Positions 28,601 to 48,020 of a stretch of 64,000 nt of DNA are shown in pieces. This DNA comes from Lucinisca nassula (lineage: Eukaryota > Mollusca > Bivalvia > Lucinida > Lucinidae). Where the stretch lies: the NCBI GenBank assembly GCA_963580285.1, contig OY757025.1:117617900-117681899 (forward strand), in the 5' to 3' direction. Below the pieces are notes generated by a model. It was not told where the DNA came from and did not search any database. It worked only from the letters and a program-made list of their open reading frames with translations. Numbering within the stretch: position 1 is the stretch's first letter; each line of letters opens with the position of its first letter. A program made the position numbers and the translations under genes.

Positions 28601-31600
28601 AGGTTTACTTCACTAAATGCTTTGTTTTGTTTGGGAGTTTAATGGCCCAGTCAACACTATTTAGGTCATTTTTGAGCCGGTCAGTTTACGTATCCGCACT
28701 TTTCCTGGACAGGCTTATACGTACCCGGTTTGCCAGTACAGTGCACATTCTTTCGCCAGAAACTGTCAACTGCCCTTCTTGAATCAGCGGAAGGGAGAGA
28801 ATGACCATAGTAAAGATTTCATGATCAATCTCCATGAAAGAATGTTGCCGACCCCCTGCAGGTATCGAACCCGTGTCCTCCTGATCACCAGTCAGACGCG
28901 CGTCCGACTGAGCTACCGAGGCCGGCTACTTCACTAAATGCAATGACATCAATTAACATCAGAATAATATCATCAAAATATAGCGAAGTTCCACATTCAC
29001 AAATGAAATATGAGCAAGAAAAAGAATCTATTGTTGGTGTCAGAAGTTTTTTTGGATATCAATATCAATATTTCAAATTCAAGCTGAAAAATGCCATGCA
29101 AAAACCGTGAAAGATAGGCTAATTTTATGTTGGTACAATATTTTGAATTTTTTATTACACAATTGTCAATGGCTCATTTACCATCACTGATTCCATTTTA
29201 TTCTAAAGTTAAAAAATATATTTGATTTTTTATGTCCCCAACTATGAAGAAGTTGAGGGGGCATATTGGTTTGGGCCTGTTAGGATATTGCATGGTTGTT
29301 TAATTAACACATTCTGTACCAGAAACCCCAAAAGGTTGGCAAACCGGGCAGGCTCAGAATGCAGCCTACACTGTTTGCAACAGTTCAGCCATTTTCCAAA
29401 AACAGTTTGAAGAAAACACAACCTGACAGCCCTAAATTTTTAAATGGACTTATGCTATGTACAGTGAAACCTGTCTTAGTGGCCACCTCTATTAAGCAAG
29501 CAACCTGTCTTAAACATGCATTCAGTTCCCAAAAAAGGAAAATGCATTAAAAATCACCTGTATTAAGCAAGCACCTGTCCTAAGCAAGCAATTTTAATCA
29601 TCCCTCAGGTGCTTGCTTAATACAGGTTGGACTGTAGAGTACTGTACAGTCCATCCAGTAAGCAAGCACCTAAGGGACAACCAAAATATGCTTGCTTATG
29701 ACAGGTGGGTGCTTAATACAGGTGAAATTTAACACATTTGTCTTTTTGGGGAACTGAATGCCTGCTTGCTTATGACAGGTTGCTTGCTTAATAGAGATGG
29801 CCACTAAGACCGGTTTTACTGTATAAGGTGGAACATGCCATTCGCTATGTACAAAATGGGTTAACTATCAGAGTTTTAGCTTTGTTTGAAAAAATGTTAT
29901 TTCCTGCCTTCCTTTATACAGGTTTGACATCTGATGGGGTGGACTTGCTACAGAAACATATTGATATTACTGCTGACATTCAGACGGCTTCTTTGGCTGC
30001 TGTGTATAGTTTTCCTAACAGTGAGATTGAAGATGATTGCAGAGTGAAAAACTGGATAGAAAAGTAAGTTTACAGCTAAATTGCCAGACTTGTAGCTCTG
30101 TTGGATTTGCGTCTGACTGATGATCAGGTCAATGTCAGGTAAAAGTCCTACAAAATTGGAAGCGACGTCTCTAAAATGACCTAAACAGTGTTGACGGGGA
30201 TGTTAAACCTCAAATCAAACAAAACAAACAAAACAGATGATCAGGAGGTTGCGGGTTCGCTGGATGCCAGGAGATCGATCATGAAATCTTTTCTGTGGTC
30301 ATTCTCGCCCTATCACTGAGTCAAGAAGGGCAGCTGTCTTTTTAGCTCACCTGAGCACGAAGTGCTCAAGGTGAGCTATTGTGATCGCTTTTTGTCCGTC
30401 GTCCGTCTGTCTGTACGCACCAACGAAACAACATTTAGGGGGCAAATAATTTGGACAGTTTGACACTTAAGTATATATTCCTGAGTCCAAATGGACTTTA
30501 TTCCATTATTTTGGTACTTAAGTGGCAAAAATTGTCTCTTAGGTGGCTTGCCACTTAAGAGAATTTGCCGCTTAAGAGAATTTGCCGCTTAAGTAGTCAA
30601 TATGCTGACGCCTAGCCACTTAAGTATCCATTCGTGAGAATGTCCGTCCGTCCGTCCGTCCGTCTGTCCGTCAACAATTTCTTTAAATGACATCTCCTCC
30701 TAGGCAAATGGCCGGATTTCAAAATCATTACACAGAAATGTTCCTCGGGTGACCTTCTACCAAAATTGCTACAATGGTTCTGCTCCGCTGAACAAAATGG
30801 CTGCCAGAGCTAAAAATAGAAAAACCTTTAAACGACATCTCCTCCTAGGCCAATGTCCCGATTTCAAAATAATTTCACAGAAATGTTCCTTGGTTGACCC
30901 TCTACCAAAATTGCTAAAATGGTTCCGCCCTGCTGAACAAAATGGCCACCACATCTAAAAATAGAAAAACCTTAACTAGGCAAATGGCCGGATTTCAAAA
31001 TCATTTGACAGAAATGTTCCTCTGGTGACCCTCTACCAAAATTGCTAAAATAGTTCTGCTCCGCTGAACAAAATGGCTGCCAGAGCTAAAAATAGAAAAA
31101 CCTTTAAACGACATCTCCTCCTAGGCCAATGTTCCGATTTCAAAATAATTTCACAGAAATGTTCCTTGGGTGACCCTCTACCAAAATTGCTAAAATGGTT
31201 CCGCTCTGCTGAACAAAATGGCCGCCACATCTAAAAATAGAAAAACCTTTAAACGACATCTCCTCCTAGGCAAATGGCCGGATTTCGAAATCATTTCACA
31301 GAAATGTTCCTATAGTGACCCTCTACCAAAATTGCTAAAATGGTTCTGCTCCATTGAAAAAACAAAATGGCTGCCAGAGCTAAAAATAGAAAAACCTTTA
31401 AACGACATCTCCTCCTAGGCCAATGTTCCTATTTCAAAATAATTTCACAGAAAAGTTCCTTAGGTGACCCTCTACCAAAATTGCTAAAATGGTTCCGCTC
31501 TGCTGAACAAAATGGCCGCCACATCTAAAAATTGAAAAACCTTAAAATGATATCTCCTCCTAAGCCAATGGCCGGATTTCAAAATCATTTCACAGAAATG

Positions 31601-34600
31601 ATCCTTGGGTGACCCTCTACCAAAATTGCTAAAATGGTTCTGCATGGCTGAACAAAATGGCATCTAGAGCTAAAAATAGAAAAACCTTTAAATCACATCT
31701 CCTCCTAGGCCAATGGCCCGATTTCAAAATAATTTTAAAGAGAGGGTCCTTGTCTGACCCTCTACCAAATAGCTAAAACGGTTTCATTTTGCTGAACAAA
31801 ATGGCCACCTTTCTTTCTTTCTTTCTTTCTATATATGCTGCCATACGACCTCGCGGGCATTCTAGGCAGGTGTAAATTAAATACACTCCAGTTTTGCAGG
31901 ATGAAAGCCTACACAGTAATTATGGTAGAGTTCTTTAACCTGCACAGGGGATGGTTCTCCCTGCACAGGGGGCCTCCAGTTTACGTCCCGATCCGAACGA
32001 CGGTGCACTTTATGACATTCATCCCTGCAAATGATGCCACCAGAGCTAGAAATAGAAAAACTTTTAAACGACATCTCCTCCTAGGCCAATGTCCTGATTT
32101 CAAAATAATTTCACAGAAATGTTCCTTGGATGACCCTCTACCAAAATTGCTTAAATGTTTTTGCTCTGCAAAACAAAATGGCCACCAGATATAAAAATAG
32201 AAGAACCTTTAAACGATATCTGCTCCTAAGCCAATGGCCGATTTCAAAATCATTTTACAGAAATTTTCCTCGGGTGACCCTCTACCAAAATTGCTAAAAT
32301 GGTTCTACTCCGCTGAACAAAATGGCCACCAGAGCTAAAAATAGAAAACCTTTAAACAACATCTCCTCCTAGGCCAATGGCCTGATTTCAAAATAATTTC
32401 ACAGAGACAGTCCTTGGCTGACCCTCTACCAAAATTGCTAAAACGGTTCTGCTTTGCTGAACAAAATGGCTGCCATACTTTGCAGAAATGTTTCTAGGGT
32501 GACCCTCATCCAAACTTGCGAAAATGGTTTTATTCCAATGAACAAAATGGCCACCAGAGTTAAAAATAGAAAAGACCTTTAGATGACAGCTTCTCCTAGG
32601 CCAGTGGCTAGATTTCGAAATAATTTTACTGAAATGTTCCTTGGGTGACCTTTTACCAAAGCTGCTAAAATGGTTTCCCTTGCTGAACACAATGGCTGTT
32701 GGATATTATTATTTTAGGTCTAGCCTGCCCAGGCAATGTAGTGCAATTTGGACCATCTATGCACATGAACTATATTGGTTTCTTTTGGTGGCAGGGCTTG
32801 AGATGTCTTCTCCGTGTTGGGTCAAATTCCAACAAAATTGGATACAACATCTTCAAAATGACCTAAATAGTGTTGACTGGGACGTTAAATCTCAATTTAA
32901 ACAAAAAGGGCATAAGAGGACCAGTCTGATCTGGATCCACACTGTTTGCAATAATGACTTTAACCCTTTACCACTCAGGGATTTTGTGAATTTCGCTGAT
33001 TTTCACAGTGTTGCACCTGACAGCAACTTCAACTAGCCATTGTTTCATAATGGATGGTCTGTTTTACACCAAACTCGGTATGAATGTTCATTGGGCAGTA
33101 GCCTTTCAAATGCAACCTTTCATGACTTGATCGTTGTTGTCATGGTAAAGAGGGGGCATCTCAAAGTTGCCAAAAAGTGTGTTTTCACATGAATTTTTGA
33201 CCCCATTTTAATCTTCACACAGCTGTCAAGGCAACAATTAAGGTGTTTGGCACTGGCCATTTTCACTGTTTGCAGCATGTTTTATCAGCATCAATTTTCA
33301 GGTATTTTGACCCCAGACACCCTCATATATAAATTTTAGCGGCTGGTTGGGCCATACTCCCAAAATTTTTCGGGATGTGAGGGGGGCGTTGCCCCCCTTC
33401 AATCCCCCCCAGAATATTTTTAGTGGGGAGGTGCGCGAAAAAACAGGTCACTTTTTGGCCCAACAAATCCTAAAGCAAACATAACTATCCAGGGGTAGAA
33501 ATGCAGATTTTAGGTGCTAATGGGGGAGGGGGGGGGGTGCAGACAGGTAAAAACACGTACCTGAGTGGTAAAGGGTTAAAGTAACCAGCCAACACAAAGT
33601 AGAAGATAATTCTGAAGGGTTAAACAGAAACATCTTAATCACTGTTTGAAATTGTACATTTATATAAAAACAACCAGGTTTTAGACCTGTCAAAATATCA
33701 ACAGGCAGTTGAAGATAAGACTATTATACATAGCTCTGTCACTGCTTGCATAATATATTATGAATCAGTAGGACTCAAAACAAACTGTGAAGTGACTAAT
33801 ATTGTTATGCTAGAAGGTATACATATTAAATTGTGCAGTGACTCTGGCTCTCATTGTATAATAGAAGTCACTTAAGAGGTTAGGACCCAGATGTTTGACC
33901 TAGTTATAAACAGAGCTACAAACATGGGCTAGATAACTAGTAGGCTCTTGAAAATAATATAGGGGGCTGAAGGATCTGCGCTGCAGTGTGTACAGAATCA
34001 GCACCAAAAACTGTTTATTTTTGATGGAGTGATGTAGATAAGGTGGGTATATGTTGATAGTTAACCCTTTACCACTCAGGGATTTTGTGAATTTTGCTGA
34101 TTTTCACAGTGTTGCACCTGACAGCAACTTCAACTAGCCATTGTTTCATAATGGATGGTCTGTTTTACACCAAACTCGGTATGAATGTTCATTGGGCAGT
34201 AGCCTTTCAAATGCAACTTTTCATGACTTGATCATTGTTGTCCTGGTAAAGAGGGGCATCTCAAAGTTGACAAAAAGTGTGTTTTCACATGAATTTTTGA
34301 CCACATTTTAATCTTCACACAGCTGTCAAGGCAACAATTAAGGTGTTTGGCACTGGCCATTTTCACTGTTTACAGCATGTTTTATCAGCATCAATTTTCA
34401 GGCATTTTTGACCCCAGACACCCTCAGATATAAATTTTAGCGGCCGGTTGGGCCATACACCCAAAATTTTTCGGGATGTGAGGGGGGTGGGGGGGGGGGT
34501 ATTGCCCCCCCCCCCCCCTTTCAATCCCCCCCCAGAATATTTTTAGTGGAGAGGCGCGCGAAAAAACAGGTCACTTTTTTGCCCAACAAATCCTAAAGCA

Positions 34601-40600: not shown

Positions 40601-43600
40601 ACTATATAAAGTGGGGTTCAACGGGGTCAGAATTATATAGGCCTGTTATCGTGATCTTAAATGGTCCTATACTACTGTTTAAAACCACAAAAAACAGCCA
40701 GAAAACAATAAAAAAGATAAAAGAAAAAACAGGGATGGTAACTGTTCACAAGAAGTTAATTACACTGCTCATGTGTCAAAGATCAGTTTTGTATTAGTAT
40801 GTTAACTGTTGTGTACAGTACAATTCCAGTCCAGTATTAAGACCATGTTTGGTATGCTTCAAAAATGGTCTTTAAGACCACTTTTGAACAGTCCCAAAGG
40901 TGGCCTCTTTGGAGAGGACACTAGGTGTATAGTACACAAATATGTTCTATAAAAGGGTTATCCTTTGGAAGCAAGCAATACACCACAGAACTGGAAAATA
41001 TGAAGTGTACATGTTTTCTGGGCCAGACTAGCTAGTTTCGGCCAGTTAGGCCTCATCAGTGACCCTCAAATATTTTCAAAATTCCACAATGGAATCAATG
41101 ATCCCAAAGGACAAGAAAATATAAACTACGCTATGGTGTAGGGCAGGGAGACTTTTTACGGCCGCCACACATTCCCAGACACCAGCTGTAGTGACGTTAA
41201 ATATACCACATTGGAGTGACGTTAAAATAAGACAGAATACCTAAAGTGTTGTAAATATGCTTTTAAAGACAGAATTAGTATCAAAATTTGGATTGTCTTA
41301 ATAGCCGAATTTCACTGTATATGGCGTAGGAATATTTGCTATTAACCCTTAAGATGTCGAGAAAAACATCTGAAATTGTTGTCTGCTTATGTCATCTGCT
41401 ATTTTTTTGGCAAACTTTTTAAAAATATTTTTGTGTACAGGCAAACAGTGTGTAGAGGAGCAGTCTGATTTGGGTCCACACTATTTGCAAAAAATGACTT
41501 TTAATGTAACCAGCAGATGACAAAGCAGACGACAATTGTTGTGTTTGGCATTTAATGGGTTAAATTACAGTTGTATCCCCAGCCCCAGTTTATTTCATTA
41601 TTGTTTCTCAGAAAGTCAGAACTTGTTTATTTATGATGCGTATACTATTATATGCATATATTATCAGTTACCCCCTGTATATATTGCATTGTAACGCATT
41701 AACCTGATAAAGATAATGCTATCTCAGGACAAGTGAGCTTTATCACGTCAACGTGACATTGCACTTTTTTTAATGAACCGGACTACTGGTAAATGACAAA
41801 AAATGTTATTGTAACTGGGAAAAATGGCAGTATTCCTTGAAAAAAATACCATAGGAAAAACATGGTCAGCTGATACTAAATATATCGACCACCAGAATAC
41901 TTGGCCACACTGACGGTAAATTGCAAACTTAAGAGTGTACAAGGGGATAAACTGATAAATAGAATACCAGATTCGTGTCTTTTGATATCAAGTTTATCAG
42001 GCTCGGCTTCGAGAATGCATGTAGAATCGCTCGGCAAGCCTCGTGATTCTACAAGCATTCTCGAAGCCTTGCCTGATAAACTTGATATCAAAAGACACAC
42101 ACCTGGTATTCTCTATTTATTATTTCAGAGCCAAGTTCGACATCATTCGTCACTCAGTAGACAGTGGTCGGCTGGTTCCCGGCCAGGCATTTGTCAGCTG
42201 TAATTTCTGTGGAAAGTCAATAGCGTGCAATATGACCTTAGCCTCAAGGTCAAGGCCAAACATGAATTCCATGCTTCCATCAACACATAAACCAAAGGTA
42301 AGACTACTGTATCTAATCATAATACGGGAGCTAGAGCAAATAATGTTAAAATGGCTAAGACCACAGCCCTATTTGAGTTTGAAAATTTGCCATTTTTTTT
42401 GGCATTGTTTTGACACATCAGAGCACAGTTGTTCAAAACTAGCAATGATGTTAGTTAATGTACCGTTAGAAATTGGTTCATTGAGAAGTGGCTGTACTTC
42501 TCGCAAACAATTAACCTTCAGTGTGCTGTAGGCACATTTATTTGCTCAAGGGGGTAGTCCAACTTGAGCAACTTATGCTCATAAGAAAGCATGTACACTC
42601 CATCGGATAAGGTCGTTCTTCACAGGAGGGATGGGTCTTTCTTATAAGGGCAGAGGTTTTACCTACATTACCGGCTGTTTGATTTTACACCCGGAAATGA
42701 CGTTAAAATTGACAATCTTTCTGATACCAGTTTTCAACAGGTTCCCCTTACCTGTTTTATGACAATTTTGTGCATACTAGACTAAATCCATCTAAACAGC
42801 TACTGGTGATAAATATGTAGCCATAATAAAGGTAGCTACACAAGCTATGTTTTTATCCTACAAACCACACACTGAGGGCTATTGTCTTGTAGTTCTTTTT
42901 TTTGTCTTACACAGTTTCTGGTCAAATCACGTGACCGCCATATTTGGTAGTCACCTGACCCATAATACTTTTGCTAGAAATGGCTGATGCATTGCCTACA
43001 ATATGTCAAAGTATGAGCTAAGTTGGTTCAGGTTTAAGGAAATTATGGCTGCCGAAATAAGGGTACCCCCTCTAAAGAACGAGTATTAAATAAATCTCAG
43101 CATAGGGTTAAGGTCCTCACCAAAACTAGTAATGATATTAGTTAACCGTTGTCCTGCTGAATATTTATATATGCCACACCCACTACCGATTATCAACCAA
43201 TCAGAATACTTGATGCAAATTATTGCAACAAATTCACAATCTGAATGGCAAACAATGTAGATCCTGATCAGATGGCTTCGTCAGAAGCCATCTGATCTTG
43301 ATCTACATTGTTTCAAAGATAAGGCATATCCGGGATTAGCAGGACAAGGGTTAATGTACTGTTAAAAATAGGATCATTTAAAAGTGGCTGTACCTCTTGC
43401 AAACAAATAAGGTCTTGATCAGATGCCACATTTTGCTGTCTAAAACGGGTTAAAACTATATGAAATGTTAGCACCTACAGCACTAGTGGGTCGATTGTCC
43501 ATGAGTGTAGGCTGGGAAATGGTTCTAAACAGTGACTGTTTTTTGTTTTATGCTTAAAATCCTGTATCTAAAGCAGTGTAGACTCTGATGAGATGCAGTA

Positions 43601-46179
43601 TGTTGCAGCATCTGATCTGTCTACAGTTTTCCAGCATATAGACCTGGTTCATGGCATATAACTCTCTGACGTGACAGTGACAAGAATTGCATGACTATGT
43701 CCGTCATAGCCATTGCCTGGACTTTGAACATGGTCAGCAATAGTCACATGACTAGCAGGCAGGAAACTTCTGGGGCCACTTGTTCAAAACTAACAATGTT
43801 GTTTGTTAACTTACTGTTAAAAAGTACTTATGCTAATTGTTTGTGAATACTGTAGACTGAAATATATTGATATGTGAATAATAGTATGAAATAAACGAAA
43901 AACTGGAAAAAAAAAACAAAAAAAAAAACTTACGGTTAAAACTGTAATCATTTATTGTGGCAAAAATACTTTTTTTTGCAGAAAAAAAATGTGAGCAGCT
44001 TTTGCAGATGCACTAGTACTCACTAGATATTGTATTCACTAGAACAGTTAACAGTTTGACCACTAACAAGCTTGTTTATCAAACAATGCTTGGAACACCT
44101 GGGCCCAGGAGTTTAGTTTGTCTTCTGTAGCTTATGACTGTTACGTATTCAATATTTCAGATTGCATGTTGTCCAGGATGCCGGAAACCACTCCCTCGCT
44201 GTGCTCTATGTCTTACTAACCTAGGAACTCCGTCAGGCTCAGCCCTTTATCAACAAAAAGAGAAAGCAGGTAGGTTGGGTTGCTTTAACCCTTAAGATAC
44301 CGAGAAAATCTACATCCGAAATGTCGTCTGCTTACATCATCTGCTGAATCTTTTGGCGAACTTTTTAAAAATATTTTTGCATACTGGCAAACAGTCTGGA
44401 CCCAGAGCAGAGAGGAGCAGTCTGATCTGGCTCCACACTGTTTGCAAAAATGACTTTTTAAAGTAACCGGCAGACGACAAAGCAGACGACAATTGTTGTG
44501 ATTGTCCTTTTATGGGTTAAGACTGGGTTAGCAGTTTAACAGCCCGATCAACACTATTTAGGTCATGTTGAGCTAGCTAGTTTACCCATCCACACCTGGG
44601 CAGGCTTATATATAAGCGAGTAACTAGAACAAATAGCACATTCTTTTGCTAGAAACTGACAACTGCCCTTCTTGAATAATGAAATGACCATAGAAAATAT
44701 TTCATGATCAATCTCCACGAGAGAATGTTGCACACCCAATGGGGATTGAACCTGTGATCTGATCACCATCAGACTGATGCACTGAGGCCTGCAGGTTAGA
44801 GATTTGTTTGTTTGATTTGAGGTTAAAGTCCCTGTCAACACTTTATGCGAGGTCACTTTGGGGATGTTGCTTCCAATTTTGTGGGACTTTTTACCAGACA
44901 CTGAGATGAAATGACATCTCAAGCCCTGACGCCAAATGAAAGCAATAGGGTTTATAAGCAAGGATGGATCGACCTGGGCAGGCTTAGATCCTCTAAGCCG
45001 TTCACCAGTACTCGTGTGTGTGGTCGGTTTCAGCTCTGCGTGGAAGCATCATGCAGCCCATCTGTTTCTTCCAGCCCTGATGGGCGGGGGCCAGACACCT
45101 GAAAATCTTGTGCATGGCATAATGGCTATGCCATGCACAAGACTTATAGTCTGATAATAAACCTGAGATTTGCTTGTCAAGTTCCCAACCTCAACTTTGA
45201 TCGCTTCTCTTAACCCATGTTGGCAGCCCCCGCCCATCAGGGCTTGAAGAATTAGATGGGCTGCACGATGCTTCCATGCAGAGCTGAAACCGACCCGACA
45301 CACGTACTGGTAAACCGCTTAGAGGATCTAAGCCTGCCCAGGCAAAGCGGTGTGAGTCAGAGAGTCCATGCTTAAAAACCCTATTGGTTTCATTGACCGA
45401 CAGGGCTTGAGATGTCATTTTATCTCAATGCCCGGTAAAAGTCCCTAGAATTGGAAACAGTGTCTCCAAAATTACCTATACAGTGTTGACAGGGATGTTA
45501 AACCTCAAACCAAACTAACACCCATGTTGAACATTTTAGTTGAGGCCACACTATCTACCCAAGTCTACCATAAAAATCCTAAAAATTTGGACACCTAAAG
45601 GACTTGATGTAATTCTTCTAAAATTTTAACCGTTGTCCTGCTGAATATTCAAATATGCCACACCCACTACTGATTATCAACCAATCAGATCAGTTGATGC
45701 AAATTATTGCAACAAATTCACAATCTGAATGACAATGTAGATCCTGATCAGATGGCTTCTTCAGAAGCCATCTGATCTGGATCTAAATTGTTTGAAAGGT
45801 AAGGCATATCTGGGATCAGCCTGACAAGGGTTAACAAATTTATTTCATGGTCCAACAAGGAGTCCAAAAGGCGCAAAACGCACACAACCGAGGTGACAAC
45901 AATAGCTCTCCTTGTACTTCGTACAGGCGAGCTAAAAATGGCATATCCATTCTTCTAAAATGTTTTTAATATTTCTTTTCAGAGTTTGACGGAAAATTGT
46001 CATCATTTGATAGTTGGTTCACATGGTGTCAGTCTTGTCGTCATGGCGGCCATAGTTCACACATCACAGACTGGTTTACAGATCATATAGAGTGTCCAGT
46101 GACAGGGTGTAATTGTAAATGTACAACGTTAGACAGTCTAAGTCAGATGACTGCTGAAACTCAAATCTGTGATAGCTGA
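1518..46179 (+). CDS. MIOS: MIOS (GATOR2 subunit Mio), C-terminal ten exons, 5' part outside window
   Basis: Joining 1518-1601, 3421-3527, 4961-5130, 7784-7852, 14027-14099, 29922-30063, 38707-38748, 42129-42297, 44161-44269 and 45983-46179 gives one open frame of about 386 codons ending in TGA. All introns are GT-AG and all phases match. The product aligns by eye with the C-terminal part of animal MIOS: solenoid segments with [17 protein letters not shown] and TSDGVDLL, then a zinc-binding end with [30 protein letters not shown] and [10 protein letters not shown]. In the family, MIOS is a core GATOR2 subunit with WDR24, WDR59, SEH1L and SEC13; GATOR2 restrains GATOR1 so that amino acids can activate mTORC1 at lysosomes. 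The C-terminal zinc module mediates contacts between subunits. Vertebrate MIOS is about 875 residues, so the N-terminal beta-propeller and first solenoid part lie upstream. Introns total over 43 kb and are almost entirely repeats. Confidence 0.95.
1686..1913 (-). mobile_element. SINE-A copy, minus strand
   Basis: Reverse of the 9.4-kb element. It is flanked by GCCAATAAAAGT at 1674-1685 and 1914-1925. It interrupts a TTAA-type foldback element whose halves lie at about 1620-1680 and 1920-2090. Confidence 0.85.
2251..2545 (-). pseudogene. Tc1/mariner-type transposase, C-terminal fragment
   Basis: The minus strand encodes [12 protein letters not shown], then a stop, then after a frame change [20 protein letters not shown] and a tail ending RACINAHG. 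This is the end of an IS630/Tc1/mariner transposase; QDDNARPH contains the second catalytic Asp. The segment that should hold DLNPIEH with the third acidic residue is lost at the frame break. Not functional. Confidence 0.8.
2541..2645 (+). pseudogene. Tc1/mariner-type transposase, middle fragment in opposite orientation
   Basis: The plus strand encodes [18 protein letters not shown] and ends FEFQDD, the part that normally comes just before QDDNARPH. It abuts the minus-strand fragment at about 2541, so the element has been inverted internally. A SINE tail follows at 2641. Confidence 0.7.
2641..2748 (+). mobile_element. SINE-C 3' fragment
   Basis: Only the last 108 bp, from catgtcgggtcaaagtccc to the aaacaaacaaac tail, joined to the inverted transposase remnant. 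Confidence 0.65.
2752..3085 (+). repeat. Short array of the 36.7-kb tandem family
   Basis: Three starts of the unit (near 2755, 2872 and 3039), the first deleted. It shows the array family is dispersed. Confidence 0.7.
3255..3402. mobile_element. Family III element without core hairpin, next to MIOS exon b
   Basis: 148 bp between TTAA at 3251-3254 and 3403-3406. It has the family ends (cccttaagctgccg, cattttatggg) but lacks the hairpin. Only 14 bp separate the right TTAA from exon b. Confidence 0.75.
3421..3527 (+). CDS. MIOS: MIOS exon b
   Basis: Acceptor ctacttacag, donor gtcagt. It encodes [20 protein letters not shown] and a helix ending STAVLE, which matches the solenoid helix pair rich in alanine in MIOS. 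The right end of a TTAA-flanked repeat lies only 18 bp upstream of the exon. Confidence 0.92.
3553..3755. mobile_element. Family I foldback element
   Basis: Begins acgcttgtcctgctgaatg about 25 bp after MIOS exon b and ends cagcaggataaggg. The flanking TTAA is decayed. Related diverged pieces fill about 3835-4050 and 4440-4740. Confidence 0.65.
4062..4353 (-). mobile_element. SINE-C copy, minus strand
   Basis: Starts tttgtttgatttgaggttta and ends in the reverse of the gggcttgaagaa head. Nearly full length. Confidence 0.75.
4961..5130 (+). CDS. MIOS: MIOS exon c
   Basis: Acceptor actttttcag, donor gtatgt. It encodes [20 protein letters not shown] and continues through [19 protein letters not shown] to DDYDDVL, one of the most conserved MIOS segments. 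The exon ends in phase 0. A 35-bp minisatellite starts about 120 bp downstream. Confidence 0.95.
5245..5425 (+). repeat. 35-bp minisatellite
   Basis: ctttattactccttcattat repeats at 35-bp spacing five times and resumes at about 5717-5785 after a SINE-C insertion. Close behind MIOS exon c. Confidence 0.8.
5431..5714 (+). mobile_element. SINE-C copy inside a 35-bp minisatellite
   Basis: Nearly full length. The minisatellite units (ttcattataatagagc...) resume directly after it, so the array predates the SINE. Confidence 0.75.
6600..7320 (+). repeat. Tandem array, 110-155-bp units
   Basis: gagatagagccttcatattt recurs near 6843, 6966, 7120 and 7232 with gacctactttatcataact between. Diverged units. 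In the intron between MIOS exons c and d. Confidence 0.7.
7451..7607 (-). pseudogene. LINE 3' end, short copy
   Basis: It shares the (ATC)n start, the attaacgtgcag segment and the ggcccccttc...tctccaggcttg segment with the other copies. Strongly 5'-truncated. Located in the MIOS intron just before exon d. Confidence 0.65.
7784..7852 (+). CDS. MIOS: MIOS exon d
   Basis: A 69-bp exon with acceptor ttttctcttccag and donor gttggt. It encodes [20 protein letters not shown] and DSK, the family's conserved DRVAFAC helix. It is in phase 0 at both ends. Confidence 0.93.
7937..8173. mobile_element. Family IV inverted-repeat element
   Basis: Starts gggcccagttattcaaag and ends tttgaacaactgggcacc. The inner palindrome is gagcagcttttgcatttgc and its complement. 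In the MIOS intron after exon d. Confidence 0.7.
8618..8919 (+). mobile_element. SINE-C copy, complete
   Basis: About 300 bp, starting cgcccccgcccataggggct and ending in aaatcaaacaaacaaa. The 12-bp duplication ACCTGTAGTTAT lies at 8606-8617 and 8920-8931. The family has no obvious tRNA head, but its tail resembles that of SINE-B. Confidence 0.85.
9410..9642 (+). mobile_element. SINE-A copy with 14-bp target duplication
   Basis: It has a tRNA-like head with box A-like tggcctagtggttaagag and box B-like ggttcgagcct, a body, and an A-rich tail (aaaacaaaaacaaaaaaa). The 14-bp duplication ATATCCAACCATAT flanks it at 9396-9409 and 9643-9656. A non-autonomous LINE-mobilised element, not a tRNA gene. 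Confidence 0.85.
9660..10110. mobile_element. Palindromic element (family VII), one orientation
   Basis: An inner palindrome aaccccaaaggggtt is flanked by ttcatgaaagtatgaac arms and followed by a segment with tgacgtca. The same parts occur in reverse at 57470-57800. Confidence 0.6.
10190..10525. mobile_element. Family VI palindromic element
   Basis: Same blocks as 14620-15305, including gataaatagaatcttgcat and the gaaaagggataaaatgc hairpin. Confidence 0.6.
10622..12900 (+). mobile_element. Tandem-core element with inverted flanks (pearl/Helentron-like)
   Basis: The left flank begins with AGCTCACCAGAGC (10625-10637); the right flank has its complement GCTCTGGTGAGC (12865-12876), then a terminal hairpin GGCCCATGGGCC (12882-12893) and tcttgttt. 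Between them are a unique part and about ten units of roughly 145 bp (from about 11280) with ccccacccctaaaccatata. Bivalve pearl elements and Helentron-associated elements share this plan. Confidence 0.7.
13012..13131. repeat. Long perfect-looking palindrome
   Basis: The arm aactccggcgaatcactcac and its reverse complement flank a short loop; the arms extend to ttcttgtgtattt. About 50-bp arms. Confidence 0.75.
13591..13795. mobile_element. TTAA foldback element, family I
   Basis: A 205-bp element between TTAA at 13587-13590 and 13796-13799. Ends are cccttctcttgctgaa and cagcaagataaggg. The core caaacagtgtagatcctgat forms a long hairpin with its partner. Confidence 0.85.
14027..14099 (+). CDS. 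MIOS: MIOS exon e
   Basis: Acceptor tctatttccag, donor gtaagg. It encodes [20 protein letters not shown] then ILLT, matching the LEGILLTG helix of MIOS. It ends in phase 1; the glycine codon is completed at 29922 after a 15.8-kb intron that contains the LTR retrotransposon. Confidence 0.93.
14620..15305. mobile_element. Large palindromic element (family VI) in nested copies
   Basis: Repeated blocks: catatgacgtcgcttctgag, ggattaaatatgcaaattag, and a palindrome ggataaaatgc...gcattttatccc. Related copies at 10190-10525 and 28480-28590. Confidence 0.65.
16331..16335 (+). repeat. Target-site duplication CATGC, left copy
   Basis: CATGC immediately precedes the 5' LTR and recurs at 26922-26926 directly after the 3' LTR. 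Five base pairs is usual for Ty3/gypsy integrases. The host sequence is a tandem-array unit reading gccatgcccc. Confidence 0.9.
16833..16841 (+). promoter_or_regulatory. TATA-like box in the LTR
   Basis: The sequence atatataaa lies about 500 bp into the LTR, upstream of an AATAAA at 17239. It is a plausible core promoter, and the same motif recurs in the 3' LTR at offset 8039. There is no transcript evidence. Confidence 0.4.
17610..17660 (+). other. CpG-rich hairpin in the LTR
   Basis: gacgacgtcagctgcgtcgtc can fold on itself and is followed by ggcgtcgcgagg. It is repeated in the 3' LTR at offset 8039. Role unknown; it may be regulatory. Confidence 0.3.
18884..18901 (+). other. Primer binding site of the retrotransposon
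   Basis: It begins two bases after the 5' LTR with TGGTGTCAG, complementary to a tRNA 3' end CTGACACCA. The first nine bases fit tRNA-Leu-type 3' ends; the following bases (TGAAGTGAGG) fit less well, so the primer tRNA identity is an inference. Confidence 0.6.
18902..19616 (+). other. Retrotransposon leader
   Basis: Non-coding sequence between primer site and Gag start. It holds several near-palindromic TGACGT-type motifs (for example atgacgtcat near 19402). I see no other gene in it. Confidence 0.5.
19617..24257 (+). CDS. Gag-Pol polyprotein (Gag-PR-IN-RT-RH) of Gmr1-like element
   Basis: An uninterrupted frame of 1546 codons. I chose the ATG at 19617; the frame extends 21 bp upstream only through a GTG at 19596. 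By residue: a charged coiled coil with a perfect-length 14-residue repeat three times (45-86); retrotransposon Gag domain (about 187-265); zinc knuckle C355-C358-H362-C367, one residue short of the usual CX2CX4HX4C; an RGG-rich tract (about 416-435); retropepsin with D512-T-G; integrase HHCC (H696, H703, C733, C736) and catalytic D766, D826, E862 (D,D35E), then a GPY module near 1003; reverse transcriptase about 1150-1310 with FVDD (D1280, D1281); RNase H from about 1420 with D1432 in RTDAS. Every catalytic residue I can place is intact. Gag and Pol are in one frame, so a frameshift is not used. Confidence 0.95.
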   Translation: MERLMQMGKDLGYEGKELQGFVKEQQDIERAERQEQRDLERLRSEEKEKERVHELAKLEEKEKERAHELAKLEEKEKERAHELAMLNVNKELEMARIKTEREAKEIGEAHLEKIKHGFELQHQELRNQLEMQRAKLELEFEKQKAEKVAHARDPKLPYFEEGKDKMDSYLSRFEKYATANKWDKSVWAAYLSALLKGRALDVYDRLSNDDAADYEKLKDALLKNFDMTERGFRKQFRYSRPEKSETFIQFSSRLRSYLEKWLNMAKIEKSFPAVCDFMARDQFLESCNRELYVHLKPKQFGNLDEMAREADLFAEARGGVYSCINKGQRDNRGAAQGKQEKVDSNKPSGRPDIKCSICGKGHLTIKCFKNPDRKQLYSAEVGATGVGDSGVKENFNTRVEAQGSQIKNENTQNVGRGYTRGRGNFRGSFRGRGKNNSTPRGAAHQVSFCQTEVHRKGDEIGSIFENKVGDPLISDREECSKETREGVCYFLKARLPTAQGLVNNKKVVVLRDTGCTGCVVRRSLVSDSQLIGKESNVTLIDESTQRYPLAMIDIDCPFFTGKTEALCMDDTLYDLVIGNIDGSKLPDMSHFSAAAVTRSQTRQDEKPYRKLKVPDQIINDDKEAFKQAQVDDPTLENIRKRVVSGNKTVSRGLNRGETRFIEKKGLAYREFTKGNKVSFQLVVPQSFRGKVLKLAHETLMSGHMGIRKTLDRVVTEFYWPGICGDVARFCKSCDICQRTIQKGRVTKVPLGKMPLIDTPFKRVAVDIVGPIEPRSDRKSRYILTMIDYATRYPEAIALPSIETERVAEALIEMFSRVGIPDEMLTDCGSQFTAEVMKEVSRLLSLQQLTCSPRHPICNGLIERFHATLKQMLRRMCAERPKDWDKYLPALLFAVREVPQESLGYSPFELLYGRNVRGPMAILRELWAEEVRDEQVLSTYQYVIELRERLEQTCKLARDNLKKVQIKQKAYYDKGARSRKFDVGDKVLLLLPTDSNKLLLQWKGPYEVVEVVNRMDYKIDVNGNVNTYHANILKQYVERQNVTSHCLLSVESTPSTENDDVDEFSLEDCAFPTAKQPETFKDVNISEMLTQDQRKEIETLIKEYPDVLSSVPGRTDQIEHDIKLLTTEPVRSKGYAIPYKVRDVMEKEIQDMLDLGVIEPSISPYSSPVVLVPKKDGSVRFCIDFRKLNKVTEFDAEPMPNMEEVINRMLGHKYFSKLDLSKGYWQVKMTSKAKPLTAFETPKGLFQFKTMPFGLVNSGATFCRLMRKILSELSNVDSFVDDMWIFTETWKDHLTSLREVLDRLRTAKLTAKPSKCMIGYSSIECLGHSVADQSVRPQEDKIQAIKDAPRPSTKRQIKSFLGLAGFYRRFIPNFSSIASPLTDLTKKSRPNKITDWQDHHEKAFQTLKNRLTSSPILRLPIFHDGNPFILRTDASDVGIGAVLLQEFEGEGRLPIAYASKKLLPREKNYSVIEKECLAIIWGVEKFRKYLYGVEFLLETDHKPLSYMQTAKVLNPRIMRWAMKLQPYRFRIVAIRGQENLGADYLSR
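24360..24370 (+). other. Polypurine tract
   Basis: AAAAGGGGAAA ends four bases before the 3' LTR, the expected place for plus-strand priming. It confirms the LTR boundary at 24375. Confidence 0.8.
24375..26921 (+). repeat. 3' LTR
   Basis: A 2547-bp copy of the 5' LTR at a constant offset of 8039 bp up to the poly-T run near 26608. There it has 14 T against 13 in the 5' copy, after which the offset is 8040. I saw no other difference in the stretches compared by eye. Confidence 0.95.
26922..26926 (+). repeat. Target-site duplication CATGC, right copy
   Basis: Pairs with 16331-16335. Beyond it the interrupted tandem unit resumes with cccaccccctcc, which shows where the two halves of the array joined before insertion. 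Confidence 0.9.
28621..28926 (-). mobile_element. SINE-B copy, complete
   Basis: The minus strand starts with a tRNA-like head (ggcctcggtagctcagtcgg, box B ggttcgatacc) and ends with an A/C-rich tail. The 15-bp duplication TACTTCACTAAATGC lies at 28606-28620 and 28927-28941. Confidence 0.85.
29462..29824. mobile_element. TA-flanked inverted-repeat element (Tc1/mariner-type MITE)
   Basis: The outer ends cagtgaaacctgtcttagtg and its near-complement form about 50-bp terminal inverted repeats flanked by TA. A second inverted repeat about gcttgcttaatacagg lies inside. It ends 98 bp before MIOS exon f. Confidence 0.8.
29922..30063 (+). CDS. MIOS: MIOS exon f
   Basis: Acceptor cctttatacag, donor gtaagt. 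It encodes [33 protein letters not shown] and CRVKNWIE, matching the DGVDL and DVQTAS segments of the family. It ends in phase 2. An inverted-repeat element ends 98 bp upstream. Confidence 0.95.
30088..30342 (+). mobile_element. SINE-B fragment split by a SINE-C tail
   Basis: tRNA-like head at 30088-30127 and remainder at 30245-30342. A 108-bp SINE-C 3' fragment (30128-30235) is inserted between two copies of GATGATCAG (30119-30127 and 30236-30244). It starts 24 bp after the MIOS exon f donor. Confidence 0.75.
30680..32700 (+). repeat. Tandem array, about 138-bp units in dimers
   Basis: Units carry aaacgacatctcctcctagg, gaaatgttcct and accaaaattgctaaaatgg. Alternate units are more alike (spacing near 274 bp), a higher-order pattern. 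SINE-E interrupts it at 31.8 kb. Apparent open frames here are repeat artefacts. Confidence 0.8.
31812..32036 (-). mobile_element. SINE-E body fragment
   Basis: A minus-strand body with a (tttc)n stretch at its 3' end, inserted into the 138-bp tandem array at 30.7-32.7 kb. Confidence 0.65.
32717..32907 (+). mobile_element. SINE-C fragment
   Basis: The 3' two thirds of the element (tagcctgcccaggcaatg to ctcaatttaaacaaaaa), diverged. Confidence 0.65.
32961..33578. mobile_element. TTAA element with 19-bp terminal inverted repeats
   Basis: TAACCCTTTACCACTCAGG at 32961 is matched by its exact reverse complement at 33560-33578, both within TTAA. No transposase frame. A second copy starts at 34062. 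Confidence 0.8.
34062..34672. mobile_element. Second copy of the 32.96-kb TTAA element, right end decayed
   Basis: A direct copy at offset 1101 with clear similarity through a G-rich and C-rich tract near 34480-34530. The right inverted repeat is reduced to ggggggtaaagg. Confidence 0.75.
34680..35160. other. Unassigned, purine-rich stretch
   Basis: Holds a purine-rich segment at about 34840-34950 (agaggtaggagagatagtag). Short frames on either strand show no recognisable product. Confidence 0.35.
36393..36712 (-). pseudogene. LINE 3' end (RTE-like ORF2 C-terminus)
   Basis: The minus strand encodes [20 protein letters not shown], a stop, [40 protein letters not shown] and a tail to a TAA. Only about 25 bp follow the stop before a (TGA)n tail. 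The RRLxWxGHV and GRPKxTW motifs mark the C-terminal end of a non-LTR ORF2. The tiny 3' UTR and trinucleotide tail fit the RTE clade. It is 5'-truncated and carries at least one stop. Confidence 0.75.
36735..38660 (+). repeat. Tandem array, about 170-bp units
   Basis: Units carry cttcttgtctgaaaccagaa, tttgatatttggtatgaagc and tatagggaaaacctt. About eleven units, ending some 50 bp before MIOS exon g. Two to three units of the same sequence lie at 2752-3085. Confidence 0.8.
38707..38748 (+). CDS. MIOS: MIOS exon g (42 bp)
   Basis: A short exon with acceptor tttttcag and donor gtatgg. It encodes [13 protein letters not shown] plus split codons, matching the NYRNLLDAWRFWHKR helix of MIOS. It is too short to stand out as an open frame and was found by phase and homology. 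A tandem array of about 170-bp units ends roughly 50 bp upstream. Confidence 0.92.
39255..39435. mobile_element. Family I foldback element, core shortened
   Basis: Ends cccttatcctgct and cagcaggataaggg. The central hairpin has lost the gatggcttcttc segment. Confidence 0.65.
39430..39745 (+). mobile_element. Composite of tRNA-like SINE head and SINE-E body
   Basis: A tRNA-like head at 39434-39500 (ggtgttgtggttaag, ggattcaaatg) is followed by the SINE-E body in reverse orientation from about 39560. Probably two insertions. A similar lone head lies at 35911-35983. Confidence 0.5.
39914..40267. mobile_element. TA-flanked inverted-repeat element
   Basis: tacagtcgaactcc at the left pairs with gaagttctactgta at the right, followed inward by ggctc.aacacc in both. 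It contains a getatable family V hairpin at 40066-40128 (gtactcattagaatcgcctc and its complement). Confidence 0.65.
40932..41197 (-). mobile_element. Hammerhead-bearing repeat, single unit, minus strand
   Basis: One unit of the 256-bp subfamily, matching 63657-63890 in reverse, including the flanking ctgcagctg and ccgtaaa segments. It interrupts a TA-flanked repeat of the kind seen at 1059-1503. Confidence 0.75.
41020..41065 (-). ncRNA. Hammerhead ribozyme, type I, consensus core, minus strand
   Basis: On the minus strand: GGGTCA, CTGATGA, stem II GGCC/GGCC with loop TAACT, GAAA, stem III ACT/AGT with loop AGCT, C before cleavage, then TGGCCC closing stem I with one G-U pair. All core residues are intact. 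Cleavage would fall between plus-strand positions 41025 and 41026. It lies in a single unit (about 40932-41197) nested inside a TA-flanked repeat. Confidence 0.87.
41346..41559. mobile_element. TTAA foldback element, family III
   Basis: 214 bp between TTAA at 41342-41345 and 41560-41563. Ends cccttaagatgtcgag and tttaatggg, with the core caaacagtgt...cacactatttgc. Confidence 0.8.
41956..42120. mobile_element. Foldback element abutting the MIOS exon h acceptor
   Basis: The left arm from ataaatagaataccag is the reverse complement of the right arm ending ctggtattctctatttat; the arms are about 75-80 bp and nearly perfect. The right arm ends 8 bp before exon h at 42129, so most of the upstream intron end belongs to the repeat. 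Confidence 0.85.
42129..42297 (+). CDS. MIOS: MIOS exon h, first zinc ligand pair
   Basis: Acceptor tatttcag, donor gtaaga. It encodes [20 protein letters not shown] then [14 protein letters not shown] and a serine-rich linker. The CX2C (CNFC) is the first ligand pair of the C-terminal zinc module. The acceptor lies immediately against a long foldback element at 41956-42120. Confidence 0.95.
42298..43141. other. Unassigned intron between MIOS exons h and i
   Basis: No repeat family or gene recognised in this 840-bp stretch beyond low-complexity runs. Confidence 0.4.
43146..43350. mobile_element. TTAA foldback element, family I
   Basis: 205 bp between TTAA at 43142-43145 and 43351-43354. Same core hairpin; ends ccgttgtcctgctgaa and agcaggacaaggg. 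Confidence 0.85.
43774..44105. mobile_element. Family IV element, diverged
   Basis: Starts ggggccacttgttcaaaac and ends cttggaacacctgggccc. The middle contains A-rich insertions and the gagcagcttttg arm. It ends about 55 bp before MIOS exon i. Confidence 0.65.
44161..44269 (+). CDS. MIOS: MIOS exon i, central zinc ligands
   Basis: Acceptor aatatttcag, donor gtaggt. It encodes [20 protein letters not shown] and [16 protein letters not shown]. The closely packed cysteines are nearly invariant in MIOS and belong to the RING-like zinc fold. It ends in phase 1. Confidence 0.95.
44289..44516. mobile_element. TTAA foldback element, family III
   Basis: 228 bp between TTAA at 44285-44288 and 44517-44520; begins 15 bp after the MIOS exon i donor site. 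Confidence 0.8.
44528..44795 (-). mobile_element. SINE-B copy, diverged
   Basis: It keeps the tail with cagtttaacagcccgatcaac, the body (ttctttt...aactgacaactgccc) and a decayed head ending actgaggcctgcagg. In the MIOS intron after exon i. Confidence 0.7.
44803..45091 (-). mobile_element. SINE-C copy, minus strand
   Basis: Full-length minus copy; with the plus copy at 45227 it forms a large inverted pair in the last MIOS intron. Confidence 0.75.
45223..45519 (+). mobile_element. SINE-C copy
   Basis: Flanked by the 10-bp duplication ACCCATGTTG at 45213-45222 and 45520-45529. Inverted relative to 44803-45091, so the nascent MIOS transcript could fold here. Confidence 0.8.
45630..45830. mobile_element. 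TTAA foldback element, family I
   Basis: 201 bp between TTAA at 45626-45629 and 45831-45834, about 150 bp before the MIOS terminal exon. Confidence 0.85.
45983..46179 (+). CDS. MIOS: MIOS terminal exon
   Basis: Acceptor cttttcag; the frame ends at TGA 46177-46179. It encodes [20 protein letters not shown], then the [14 protein letters not shown] motif and a short tail ending ICDS. The Cys and His residues complete the zinc module. A TTAA-flanked repeat begins 10 bp after the stop, so the 3' UTR either contains it or ends almost at once. Confidence 0.95.
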
Positions 46180-46189
46180 TACTAATTAA

Positions 46190-46402
46190 CCCTTTTGTAC
46201 CAACTGGAATCTTCCACCTTATATATAGCAGGAGTCCATTTCAAAATTTAGGGGTGTTAGGTTGACTTTTCTTCAAAATTTATTTGTAAAATGGCTTAAC
46301 TTTTCGCAAACAGTGTAGGCCCTGATCAGAAGTCGCATTCTGCGGCGTCTGATCTGGGCCTGCACTGTTTGCCCTGGTACCCGTTTTGGGGTACTAAATG
46401 GG
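46190..46402. mobile_element. TTAA foldback element, family II, at the MIOS 3' end
   Basis: Flanked by TTAA at 46186-46189 and 46403-46406, with ends ccctttt and atggg. The internal hairpin carries caaacagtgtaggccctgat paired with the segment ending gcactgtttgc. It begins 10 bp after the MIOS TGA. The TTAA duplication and CCC ends suggest mobilisation by a piggyBac-type transposase (inference). Confidence 0.85.
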
Positions 46403-46599
46403 TTAATCCATACTAACAGCCTCTACAAGTGTTTGGGAACCAGCTTGTTGCTGGGATCCAGCCTCTTTTTAACAATTCATCATGGATCGAAAGCATAAAC
46501 TGTGTTTGCAGAAGGCTTCAACCCGTACATCAACCATAGTGCAGTTTATATTTTACTTTTGGTCCTTTGAGATCAGTGTGAATATTCTGAGAAATCAGA

Positions 46600-46605
46600 A
46601 ATAAA
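46600..46605 (+). promoter_or_regulatory. Candidate polyadenylation hexamer AATAAA
   Basis: This is the first AATAAA after the MIOS stop that I noticed, 420 bp downstream. It lies inside the hammerhead-bearing tandem repeat and recurs at 46981 in the second unit, so it may be incidental. The true 3' end of MIOS cannot be fixed from sequence alone. Confidence 0.25.
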
Positions 46606-46749
46606 TTATTGGTTTAGACTCATATTCTAGACAGGTTTTTAATTATTTGGACCCCATTTTGATTTATATCAGTCTTTGAATCGACTGCCTATTCGAAATT
46701 TGCAAAATTGCAGTATGTTTCCTCTGGCTATCTTTGCAGGATCACTACA

Positions 46750-46793
46750 GGGTCACTGATGAGGCTTATTAGCCGAACTACGTAGTATGACCC
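46750..46793 (+). ncRNA. Degenerate hammerhead ribozyme
   Basis: The same fold as the copy 380 bp downstream: GGGTCA/TGACCC stem I, CTGATGA core, GGCT/AGCC stem II. The GAAA box reads GAAC, so one core A is missing. It is probably inactive or strongly impaired. Confidence 0.8.
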
Positions 46794-47129
46794 ATCTTCT
46801 TTCTTATGAATTTTTTCATTGCTCTTAAAGGAACTCATTTTTGATTTTTATTTGCCTTCACTGCAGCTGGTGTTGTGCCGTGTGGCGGCCGTAAAACGTC
46901 TCCCCGTACATCAACCATAGTGCAGTTTATATTTTACTTTTGGTCCTTTGAGATCAGTGTGAATATTCTGAGAAATCAGAAATAAATTATTGGTTTAGAC
47001 TCATATTCTAGACAGGTTTTTAATTATTTGGACCCATTTTGATTTATATCAGTCTTTGAATCGACTGCCTATTCGAAATTCGCAAAATTGCAGTATGTTT
47101 CCTCTGGCTATCTTTGCCGGATCATTACA

Positions 47130-47175
47130 GGGTCACTGATGAGGCTTTATTAGCCGAAACTACGTAGTATGACCC
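47130..47175 (+). ncRNA. Hammerhead ribozyme, type I, consensus core
   Basis: Reading in order: stem I strand GGGTCA, core CTGATGA, stem II GGCT/AGCC with loop TTATT, core GAAA, stem III of three pairs (ACT/AGT, loop ACGT), then A as the residue before cleavage and closing stem I strand TGACCC. All invariant core positions are present and stem I is six perfect pairs. Predicted cleavage is after A47169. The very short stem III is typical of hammerheads in Penelope-like elements and retrozymes, where two ribozymes pair to be active. It sits in the second unit of a 380-bp tandem repeat. Confidence 0.88.
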
Positions 47176-47520
47176 ATCTTCTTTCTTGTGAATTTTTTCA
47201 TTGCTCTTAAAGGAACTCATTTTTGATTTTTATTTGAAGGGAAATAAATACACCTTTATGGGAGGCAGCTCTTACAAAAATACTTGTCTACCTTGTGAGT
47301 AGAGGTCTACTTTTAATCCTTAAAATGCCATGAAAAAAATGCATCTGAAGTAAAAAAATGCATCTGGAAATGTTGTCTGTTCATGTCATCTGCTGCATCT
47401 TCTTGCAAACTTTGAAACATTTTTCCAAACTCGCAAACATTGTGGACCCTGATCAGACTGCTCCTTCAGGTGGATCTTGGTCTGCACTGTTTACTTTGGC
47501 ATATCTGTCCTAATACTTAA

Positions 47521-47758
47521 CCCTGAAGATGCTGAGAAAAACTACATCTGAAAATGTTGTCAGCTTATGTCGTCTGCTGAGTATTCTTGCAAACTTTTTA
47601 AAAATACTTTCGCATACAGGCAAACAGTGTAGACCCAGATCAGACTGCTCCTAGAGAAGCAGTCTGACCTGGATTCACACTGTTTGCAAGACGTGACTTT
47701 TAAAGTAACCAACAGACGACAAAGCAGACAACAATTGTCGTGATTGGCATTTTATGGG
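47521..47758. mobile_element. Family III foldback element
   Basis: TTAA on the left (47517-47520), decayed to TAAA on the right. The hairpin core gcaaacagtgtagacccaga and its partner are well kept. A partial relative lies at 47316-47500. Confidence 0.75.
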
Positions 47759-47796: not shown

Positions 47797-48020
47797 GAGC
47801 GCTTTGGTGCAGTGGTAGCGCATCGGAATTGTGATTGAGAGGTTGCGGGTTCAAGCCTCACGCTGACCAAAGTGTTGTGTCCTTGAGCAAGACACTTCAT
47901 CCACATTGCTTAAAAAAATAAAATAAAAAAAAAAAGTACTGGTTACCACCCAGTAAATCCTGCTCGTAATGCTCCGATGTGAGCGAGTAGCAGTAATATG
48001 AGAAAAAAAAAAAAAAAAAA
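47797..48020 (+). mobile_element. SINE-D copy
   Basis: tRNA-like head with box A-like ttggtgcagtggtagcgcat and box B gggttcaagcc, followed by gtgtccttgagcaagacact and an A-rich tail at 48003-48020. Confidence 0.7.

What the first reader, a model, noticed from the sequence alone, without database searches (positions are those of the whole stretch)
46522..47240. Tandem repeat with type I hammerhead ribozymes just downstream of MIOS
Two 380-bp direct units each hold a hammerhead. The second (47130-47175) has every core position intact: CTGATGA, GAAA, six-pair stem I, four-pair stem II, and a 3-pair stem III with cleavage after A47169. Short stem III plus tandem units is the layout of retrozymes and Penelope pseudo-LTRs, which yield unit-length and circular RNAs. 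The repeat is in sense with MIOS and close to its stop, so read-through transcripts could be cut here.
Basis: partly seen in the sequence, partly recalled or inferred. Interest (0 to 1): 0.88.

Follow-up and report, generated by a model that had tools for sequence, protein, structure and literature searches.

The report
Genomic copies of an edited RNA circle
The repeat beside the MIOS gene belongs to a very large family of small self-cutting RNA elements whose genomic copies look like several rounds of copying of one RNA circle, some of them from circles that had been chemically edited first.

Summary
The repeat is real: a 1.87-unit array (46522-47236) of a retrozyme-type element with a type I hammerhead. 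Unit 1's hammerhead has lost a core A; unit 2's (47130-47175) is intact. The genome holds 16,301 exact copies of this 40-nt core and a large sister family, one diverged copy of which lies in the window on the minus strand. In 54 of 54 arrays scored the 3' end falls at unit position 330-337 (one further array, L055, is an exception), about 66 nt past the cleavage site; 5' ends vary and lengths are not whole units. Units of one array share variants (within 1.2% against between 3.2%; 0 of 2,000 shuffles as low). So arrays look like laps of reverse transcription round one RNA circle. Unexpectedly, 289 copies have ribozyme adenosines read as G, against 3 for a mirrored T>C control. The A>G mosaic is the same in all listed units of 31 of 31 multi-unit arrays of two families, while different arrays match in about 4% of pairs. 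This fits ADAR-like editing of the circle before copying; one array read in full (L070) has laps that differ. Helper enzyme, host ADAR, cleavage and any effect on MIOS are inferred or untested.

The parts
46522..47236 (+). retrozyme array, 1.87 laps: begins at unit position 1, ends at the family's fixed 3' end (position 335)
46522..46902 (+). unit 1, 381 bp
46903..47236 (+). unit 2, 334 bp; shares T209A and G293T with unit 1
46855..46902 (+). 48-bp link present only between units
46750..46793 (+). hammerhead of unit 1, one A of GAAA and one T of loop 2 missing
47130..47175 (+). hammerhead of unit 2, core intact, predicted cut after 47169
47225..47236 (+). GATTTTTATTTG, the family's fixed 3' end (inferred start site of reverse transcription), 67 nt past the cut
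40936..41203 (-). diverged copy of the sister family (about 260-bp unit)
41020..41065 (-). hammerhead of the sister-family copy, stem II and stem III palindrome changed in a compensated way
45983..46179 (+). last MIOS exon (acceptor inferred), stop 46177-46179; context only

Best explanation
A member of a large animal-type retrozyme family. Inferred from known retrozymes: arrays are transcribed, the hammerhead cuts the RNA into units, and a host ligase closes them into circles of about 383 nt. Shown on genomic copies: insertions begin at one fixed internal site of the unit, about 66 nt 3' of the cut, and extend 5'-ward for a variable distance, often more than once round, so that laps of one array share variants that other arrays lack. 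Shown: in a minority of copies many adenosines of the sense strand read as G, with the same mosaic in the listed laps of an array. Inferred: this is ADAR-type A-to-I editing of the circle before it was copied. Inferred: cutting and closure came before editing, because edited cores should not cleave. Inferred: the reverse transcriptase is of Penelope type, because a Penelope enzyme is known to start internally at a fixed site.
For: Exact core 16,301 times, control 0. 3' junction at 330-337 in 54 of 54 arrays scored, 41 at 333-335; 41 of these 54 are longer than one lap, 0.42 to 6.24 laps. Mean difference 0.0120 within arrays (130 pairs) against 0.0318 between (7,605 pairs), 0 of 2,000 shuffles as low; 95 variants shared by two or more laps, 85 of them by all laps covering the site. 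A>G double pattern 289 matches against 3 for the T>C mirror; 20 of 20 and 11 of 11 multi-unit arrays identical in their listed units (17 of 17 and 10 of 10 with changes beyond the two required), against 70 of 1,540 and 62 of 1,431 pairs of different arrays with three or more changes. L085: 19 A>G in both laps. The A after G in GAAA is changed least, 13 of 75 and 8 of 66 arrays, as reported for molluscan ADAR1.
Against: No RNA or cleavage data. L070: laps differ by 13 A>G. L055 ends at another position. One search listed 100 of 289 places; a lap without both required changes is not listed, and four of the multi-unit arrays have a gap where one unit is missing from the list (spacings 767 and 704; 522 and 519). 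No clear target-site duplication: 6 of 37 arrays reach the 95th percentile of mismatched flanks, about 2 expected. 5' ends are not even round the circle. No helper and no ADAR gene identified. Rfam does not call the ribozyme.
Confidence: 0.82

Rival explanations
1. Linear multi-unit transcripts, not circles, are the templates; a Penelope-type enzyme starts inside them at the fixed site and stops at random.
For: The anole Penelope enzyme uses unprocessed linear RNA in vitro (PMC11167929). L070 has laps that differ in 13 A>G.
Against: Shared private variants across up to six laps and the same A>G mosaic in listed laps of 31 of 31 arrays are not expected from units edited or mutated one by one.
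Confidence: 0.12
2. Arrays grew in place by unequal crossing-over or slippage after insertion of a shorter copy, as in ordinary satellites.
For: Also gives alike units within an array.
Against: A copy of at most one lap with these ends lacks the complete link that joins the units of longer arrays, so growth would need a first copy longer than one lap; fixed 3' with variable 5' ends at dispersed sites is the mark of reverse transcription; L085 keeps 11 lap differences, so laps were not homogenised lately.
Confidence: 0.05
3. The A>G clusters are not RNA editing but another sense-strand mutation process, such as misreading by the reverse transcriptase.
For: No ADAR gene was confirmed here; some searches did not complete.
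Against: Same mosaic in listed laps; T>C mirror 3 against 289; neighbour preference.
Confidence: 0.08
4. The array serves MIOS: read-through transcripts are cut by the unit 2 hammerhead.
For: Same strand, 342 nt past the stop, one intact hammerhead.
Against: It is one of many thousand dispersed copies; the first AATAAA lies upstream of both hammerheads; only one of two ribozymes is intact.
Confidence: 0.03

Closest known systems
Metazoan non-LTR retrozymes (Cervera and de la Pena 2020, PMC7229834; abstract, two text parts, discussion and ligation section read), notably that of Mytilus galloprovincialis
   Same: Type I hammerhead, 350-390 bp units, thousands of copies, tandem arrays, no LTR signals; circRNA as template and more-than-unit cDNA were proposed there
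   Different: Here the copies themselves show a fixed internal 3' end, lap-shared variants and A>G mosaics; no RNA shown; no clear target duplications
Penelope-like elements (Frangieh et al. 2024, PMC11167929; first two of four parts read)
   Same: Internal start of reverse transcription at a fixed site (85-92 nt past the hammerhead cut there, about 66 nt here); tandem copies; type I hammerhead
   Different: No reading frame here, a 383-bp unit, and no significant similarity to three Penelope-like loci of this genome
Newt and axolotl hammerhead repeats (described in PMC7229834)
   Same: Short stem III with palindromic loop, dimer cleavage suspected
   Different: Stem III one or two pairs longer here; dimer cleavage untested
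Roll-Seq (PMC11331410; abstract read)
   Same: Concatemeric cDNA from an RNA circle: variants in all laps come from the RNA, variants in one lap arose in copying or later
   Different: An in vitro method; here the genome has kept such concatemers

Membership tests
Metazoan retrozyme | Type I hammerhead with intact core | tested here: met
   By sequence only: unit 2 and 16,301 exact cores. Rfam gathering score not reached
Metazoan retrozyme | Small tandem repeats (about 150-450 bp), dispersed in many copies | tested here: met
   381-384 bp units, arrays on many contigs
Metazoan retrozyme | No reading frame and no LTR, primer-binding or polypurine signals | not tested
   No long frame was noticed in the 383-bp unit, but LTR, primer-binding and polypurine signals were not searched for
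Metazoan retrozyme | Expressed as linear and circular RNA, self-cleaving | not testable with these tools
   Only the genomic footprint of circles
Metazoan retrozyme | Target-site duplications, when present longer than 4 bp | tested here: inconclusive
   6 of 37 arrays reach the 95th percentile of mismatched flanks, no consistent duplication
Penelope-like element | Frame with reverse transcriptase and GIY-YIG nuclease | tested here: not met
   Array and unit are too short to hold one; such frames exist elsewhere in the genome
Penelope-like element (way of working) | Reverse transcription starts at a fixed internal site past the hammerhead | tested here: met
   As read from ends of genomic copies: 54 of 54 scored at 330-337, L055 an exception; enzyme not shown

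The most novel reading that the evidence does not exclude
Ribozyme circles are a standing ADAR target in this animal: closed circles are edited, which kills the ribozyme, yet a Penelope-type enzyme copies them for several laps, leaving inserts that cannot make new circles. ADAR would then act as a brake on retrozymes. In L070 the lap copied later holds every A>G of the earlier lap plus 13 more, so editing may continue on the template while it is being read.
Probability: 0.3. Interest if true: 0.9.

Novelty: new member of a known kind. Interest (0 to 1): 0.74.

Why it matters
In the papers read here the circle as template of animal retrozymes is a proposal, and one of them (PMC7761336, passages seen) says the repeats show no motif that would point to the helper. 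These arrays make both testable from DNA alone: lap-shared variants point to a circle, and the fixed 3' end marks where the enzyme starts. The A>G arrays would be a genomic archive of edited circular RNA and suggest the order cut, close, edit, copy. The same test can be run on any genome that holds retrozymes.

Tried and rejected
Rfam at curated scores gave nothing; a search of the phage collection gave nothing. Target-site duplications: no clear result. A hammerhead in three Penelope-like loci, by descriptor and by reading CTGANGA sites: none found. Similarity of these loci to the retrozyme: none significant; an 11-mer (TTTTTGATTTT) seen by eye at the 3' ends of the retrozyme and of L062 gave p 0.0007 against letter shuffles, L061 gave 0.38, L063 was not compared; a hint only. 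Template-borne variants in the hammerhead 2 of 54 (6.5 expected) and single-unit variants 30 of 214 (25.7 expected): suggestive of selection, small numbers. A tree of 100 units was built but no statistic was printed from it, so nothing rests on it. Other palindromes in stem III: 1,057 matches with A or T as first loop base; of the 32 whose letters were shown, one is palindromic by my count. A link-pattern count and a search for the ADAR domain did not complete. Literature: searches listed no paper that, judged by title and abstract start only, describes edited retrozyme copies; preprints and most subscription journals are not held. The species was not identified; that it is a mollusc is a guess from memory, so the molluscan ADAR papers are an analogy.

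Full report
Observation. The repeat is there: units 46522-46902 and 46903-47236, the second without the last 48 bases of the first. The unit 2 hammerhead (47130-47175) has an intact core with a predicted cut after 47169; unit 1 lacks one A of GAAA and one T of loop 2. Rfam does not call it at curated scores; weak type III matches appear in E-value mode. The fold of the isolated motif alone does not show stem III. MIOS is correctly named: the frame ending at 46179 matches zinc_ribbon_16 and MIOS chains of the PDB.

Family size. The window lies on contig C19 of a 2.93-Gb assembly. The exact 40-nt core occurs 8,059 + 8,242 times, its reversed control 0 times. A pattern that requires a base other than C at the first loop position of stem III gives 25,934 matches, 1,057 of them with A or T there. 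Of the 100 places listed, 95 have the palindromic loop AGCU by my count. They are mainly a sister family with units of about 260 bp (array L084); the window holds a diverged copy on the minus strand at 41203-40936. Between the families stem II has changed U-A to C-G and the stem III palindrome ACUACGUAGU has become ACUAGCUAGU. A palindromic helix III is what a dimeric hammerhead needs (recalled); the axolotl element is described with a palindromic tetraloop and dimer cleavage. Two families are too few to prove it.

Anatomy of insertions. I fetched 39 arrays out of the best-scoring matches, which scored 40 of 1,740 candidates, and 20 consecutive arrays from the start of C1, chosen only by an exact core (from the list). 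L053 and L054 have the flanks of other arrays and were dropped, which leaves 57. The 3' junction was scored in 54 and lies at unit position 330-337 in 54, at 333-335 in 41. Not scored: L077 (3' end not fetched), L071 (5' end cut off; its 3' end is at 336) and L055, a true exception that ends at position 52. In the 54, lengths run from 0.42 to 6.24 laps, 41 of them above one lap; the first set is biased to long arrays because the query was 334 bp. The 5' ends vary but not evenly: 7 of 18 complete C1 arrays begin at positions 8-42, six of them on the first lap; this is unexplained. The 48-bp link occurs between units and not at the fixed 3' end.

One circle per array. The 57 arrays were split into 149 laps or partial laps. 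Mean difference is 0.0120 within arrays (130 pairs) and 0.0318 between arrays (7,605 pairs); with the 119 pieces of 150 nt or more, 0 of 2,000 label shuffles are as low as observed. At positions covered at least twice in one array, 95 variants are shared by two or more laps, 85 of them by all laps covering the site, and 214 occur in one lap only. L047 carries the same four changes in five laps, L057 the same three in four, L034 the same three in six. This is the logic of Roll-Seq: changes in all laps come from the circular RNA, changes in one lap arose in copying or later (PMC11331410, abstract). The window array fits: both units share T209A and G293T.

Editing. L070, from the C1 sample, has A>G at six positions in both laps and 13 further A>G in the lap that would be copied later; apart from the common 56T>C it has one T>C. 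Outside L070 single-unit variants show no such bias: 11 A>G and 21 T>C with 92 A and 147 T in the unit. A genome-wide test followed. The core with A238>G and A241>G, and each other A free to be A or G, occurs 289 times; the mirror with two T>C, each other T free to be T or C, occurs 3 times, without further T>C. One search listed 100 of the 289 places, in 75 arrays. Of these, 54 arrays have four or more of ten A changed, in 24 different patterns. Twenty arrays have two or more listed units, and in 20 of 20 the units are identical (17 of 17 with four or more changes); among arrays with three or more changes, 70 of 1,540 pairs match. The sister family repeats this: 82 matches, all listed, 66 arrays, 11 of 11 multi-unit arrays identical (10 of 10 with three or more changes), 62 of 1,431 pairs of different arrays. 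Limits: a lap lacking the two required changes is not listed; spacings of 767, 704, 522 and 519 bp show four places where a unit between listed ones is missing. Arrays with two or more listed units are 20 of 75 among edited and 16 of 75 among exact cores, so unlisted laps are not obviously commoner in edited arrays. L085 was fetched as a check: 19 A>G in both laps, 11 other lap differences, one of them at an A>G site that is deleted in the other lap. So of two edited arrays read in full one has matching laps and one (L070) a nested pattern. The first A of GAAA, preceded by G, is changed least: 13 of 75 and 8 of 66 arrays (p 1e-7 and 8e-9 against T-preceded sites). Oyster and abalone ADAR1 are reported to edit A after G weakly (PMC6651903, abstract and one section). 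No ADAR gene was confirmed in this genome, because the search did not complete.

Order of events. A6 and A9 of the core are among the changed bases, and such changes should abolish cleavage (recalled). Multi-lap arrays with such cores would then come from RNA cut and closed before editing, unless the circle arose otherwise. Tail 35-mers (19,672) do not greatly outnumber exact 40-nt cores (16,301), so inserts that stop at the cut site are not the rule; the two patterns differ in length and mutability, so this is rough.

Enzyme. A fixed start about 66 nt past the cut resembles the anole Penelope enzyme, which starts 85-92 nt past its hammerhead cut at a site not homologous to the target and prefers AT-rich DNA (PMC11167929; distances computed from its text). 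[quoted passage not shown] Next to the junction G is rare at +1 and +2 (6% each, 19% in the flanks). GIY-YIG gives 138 matches among 150 scored of 746 candidates; 28 lie in open frames of 700 residues or more by my count. Three loci carry reverse transcriptase plus GIY-YIG, two of them in tandem with periods of 4,027 and 3,808 bp. None shows significant similarity to the retrozyme; an 11-mer shared with the 3' end of L062 is a hint. The helper is inferred.

Verdict. The window array is an ordinary member of a very large retrozyme family. What deserves attention is the family's record: arrays that look like laps of single circles, some edited before copying. The MIOS read-through idea has no support.

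Noticed in passing
L070 (G000:C1:1717053-1718013): Two-lap array in which the lap copied later carries all six A>G of the earlier lap and 13 more.
   Followed up: partly
family A arrays, unit positions 8-42: Excess of 5' ends there (7 of 18 complete C1 arrays), unexplained.
   Followed up: no
L061, L062: Penelope-like elements in nearly identical head-to-tail pairs (99.9%, periods 4,027 and 3,808 bp) with an upstream second frame; their 3' ends lie in TA microsatellites.
   Followed up: partly
window 46600: The first AATAAA/ATTAAA after the MIOS stop lies inside retrozyme unit 1, which might supply the poly(A) signal.
   Followed up: no
window 47797-47930: tRNA-like promoter boxes followed by an A-rich tail, like a tRNA-derived SINE (by eye); ARAGORN finds no tRNA.
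   Followed up: partly
window 46306-46372, 47620-47687 and 45732-45791: Short near-perfect inverted repeats of one sequence type (GCAAACAGTGTAGAYCCTGATCAGA), possibly a small hairpin or MITE-like element.
   Followed up: no
window 11294-12418, 15859-16335, 26922-27458, 30681-31806: Several arrays of 144-146 bp period, some with similar consensus units.
   Followed up: no
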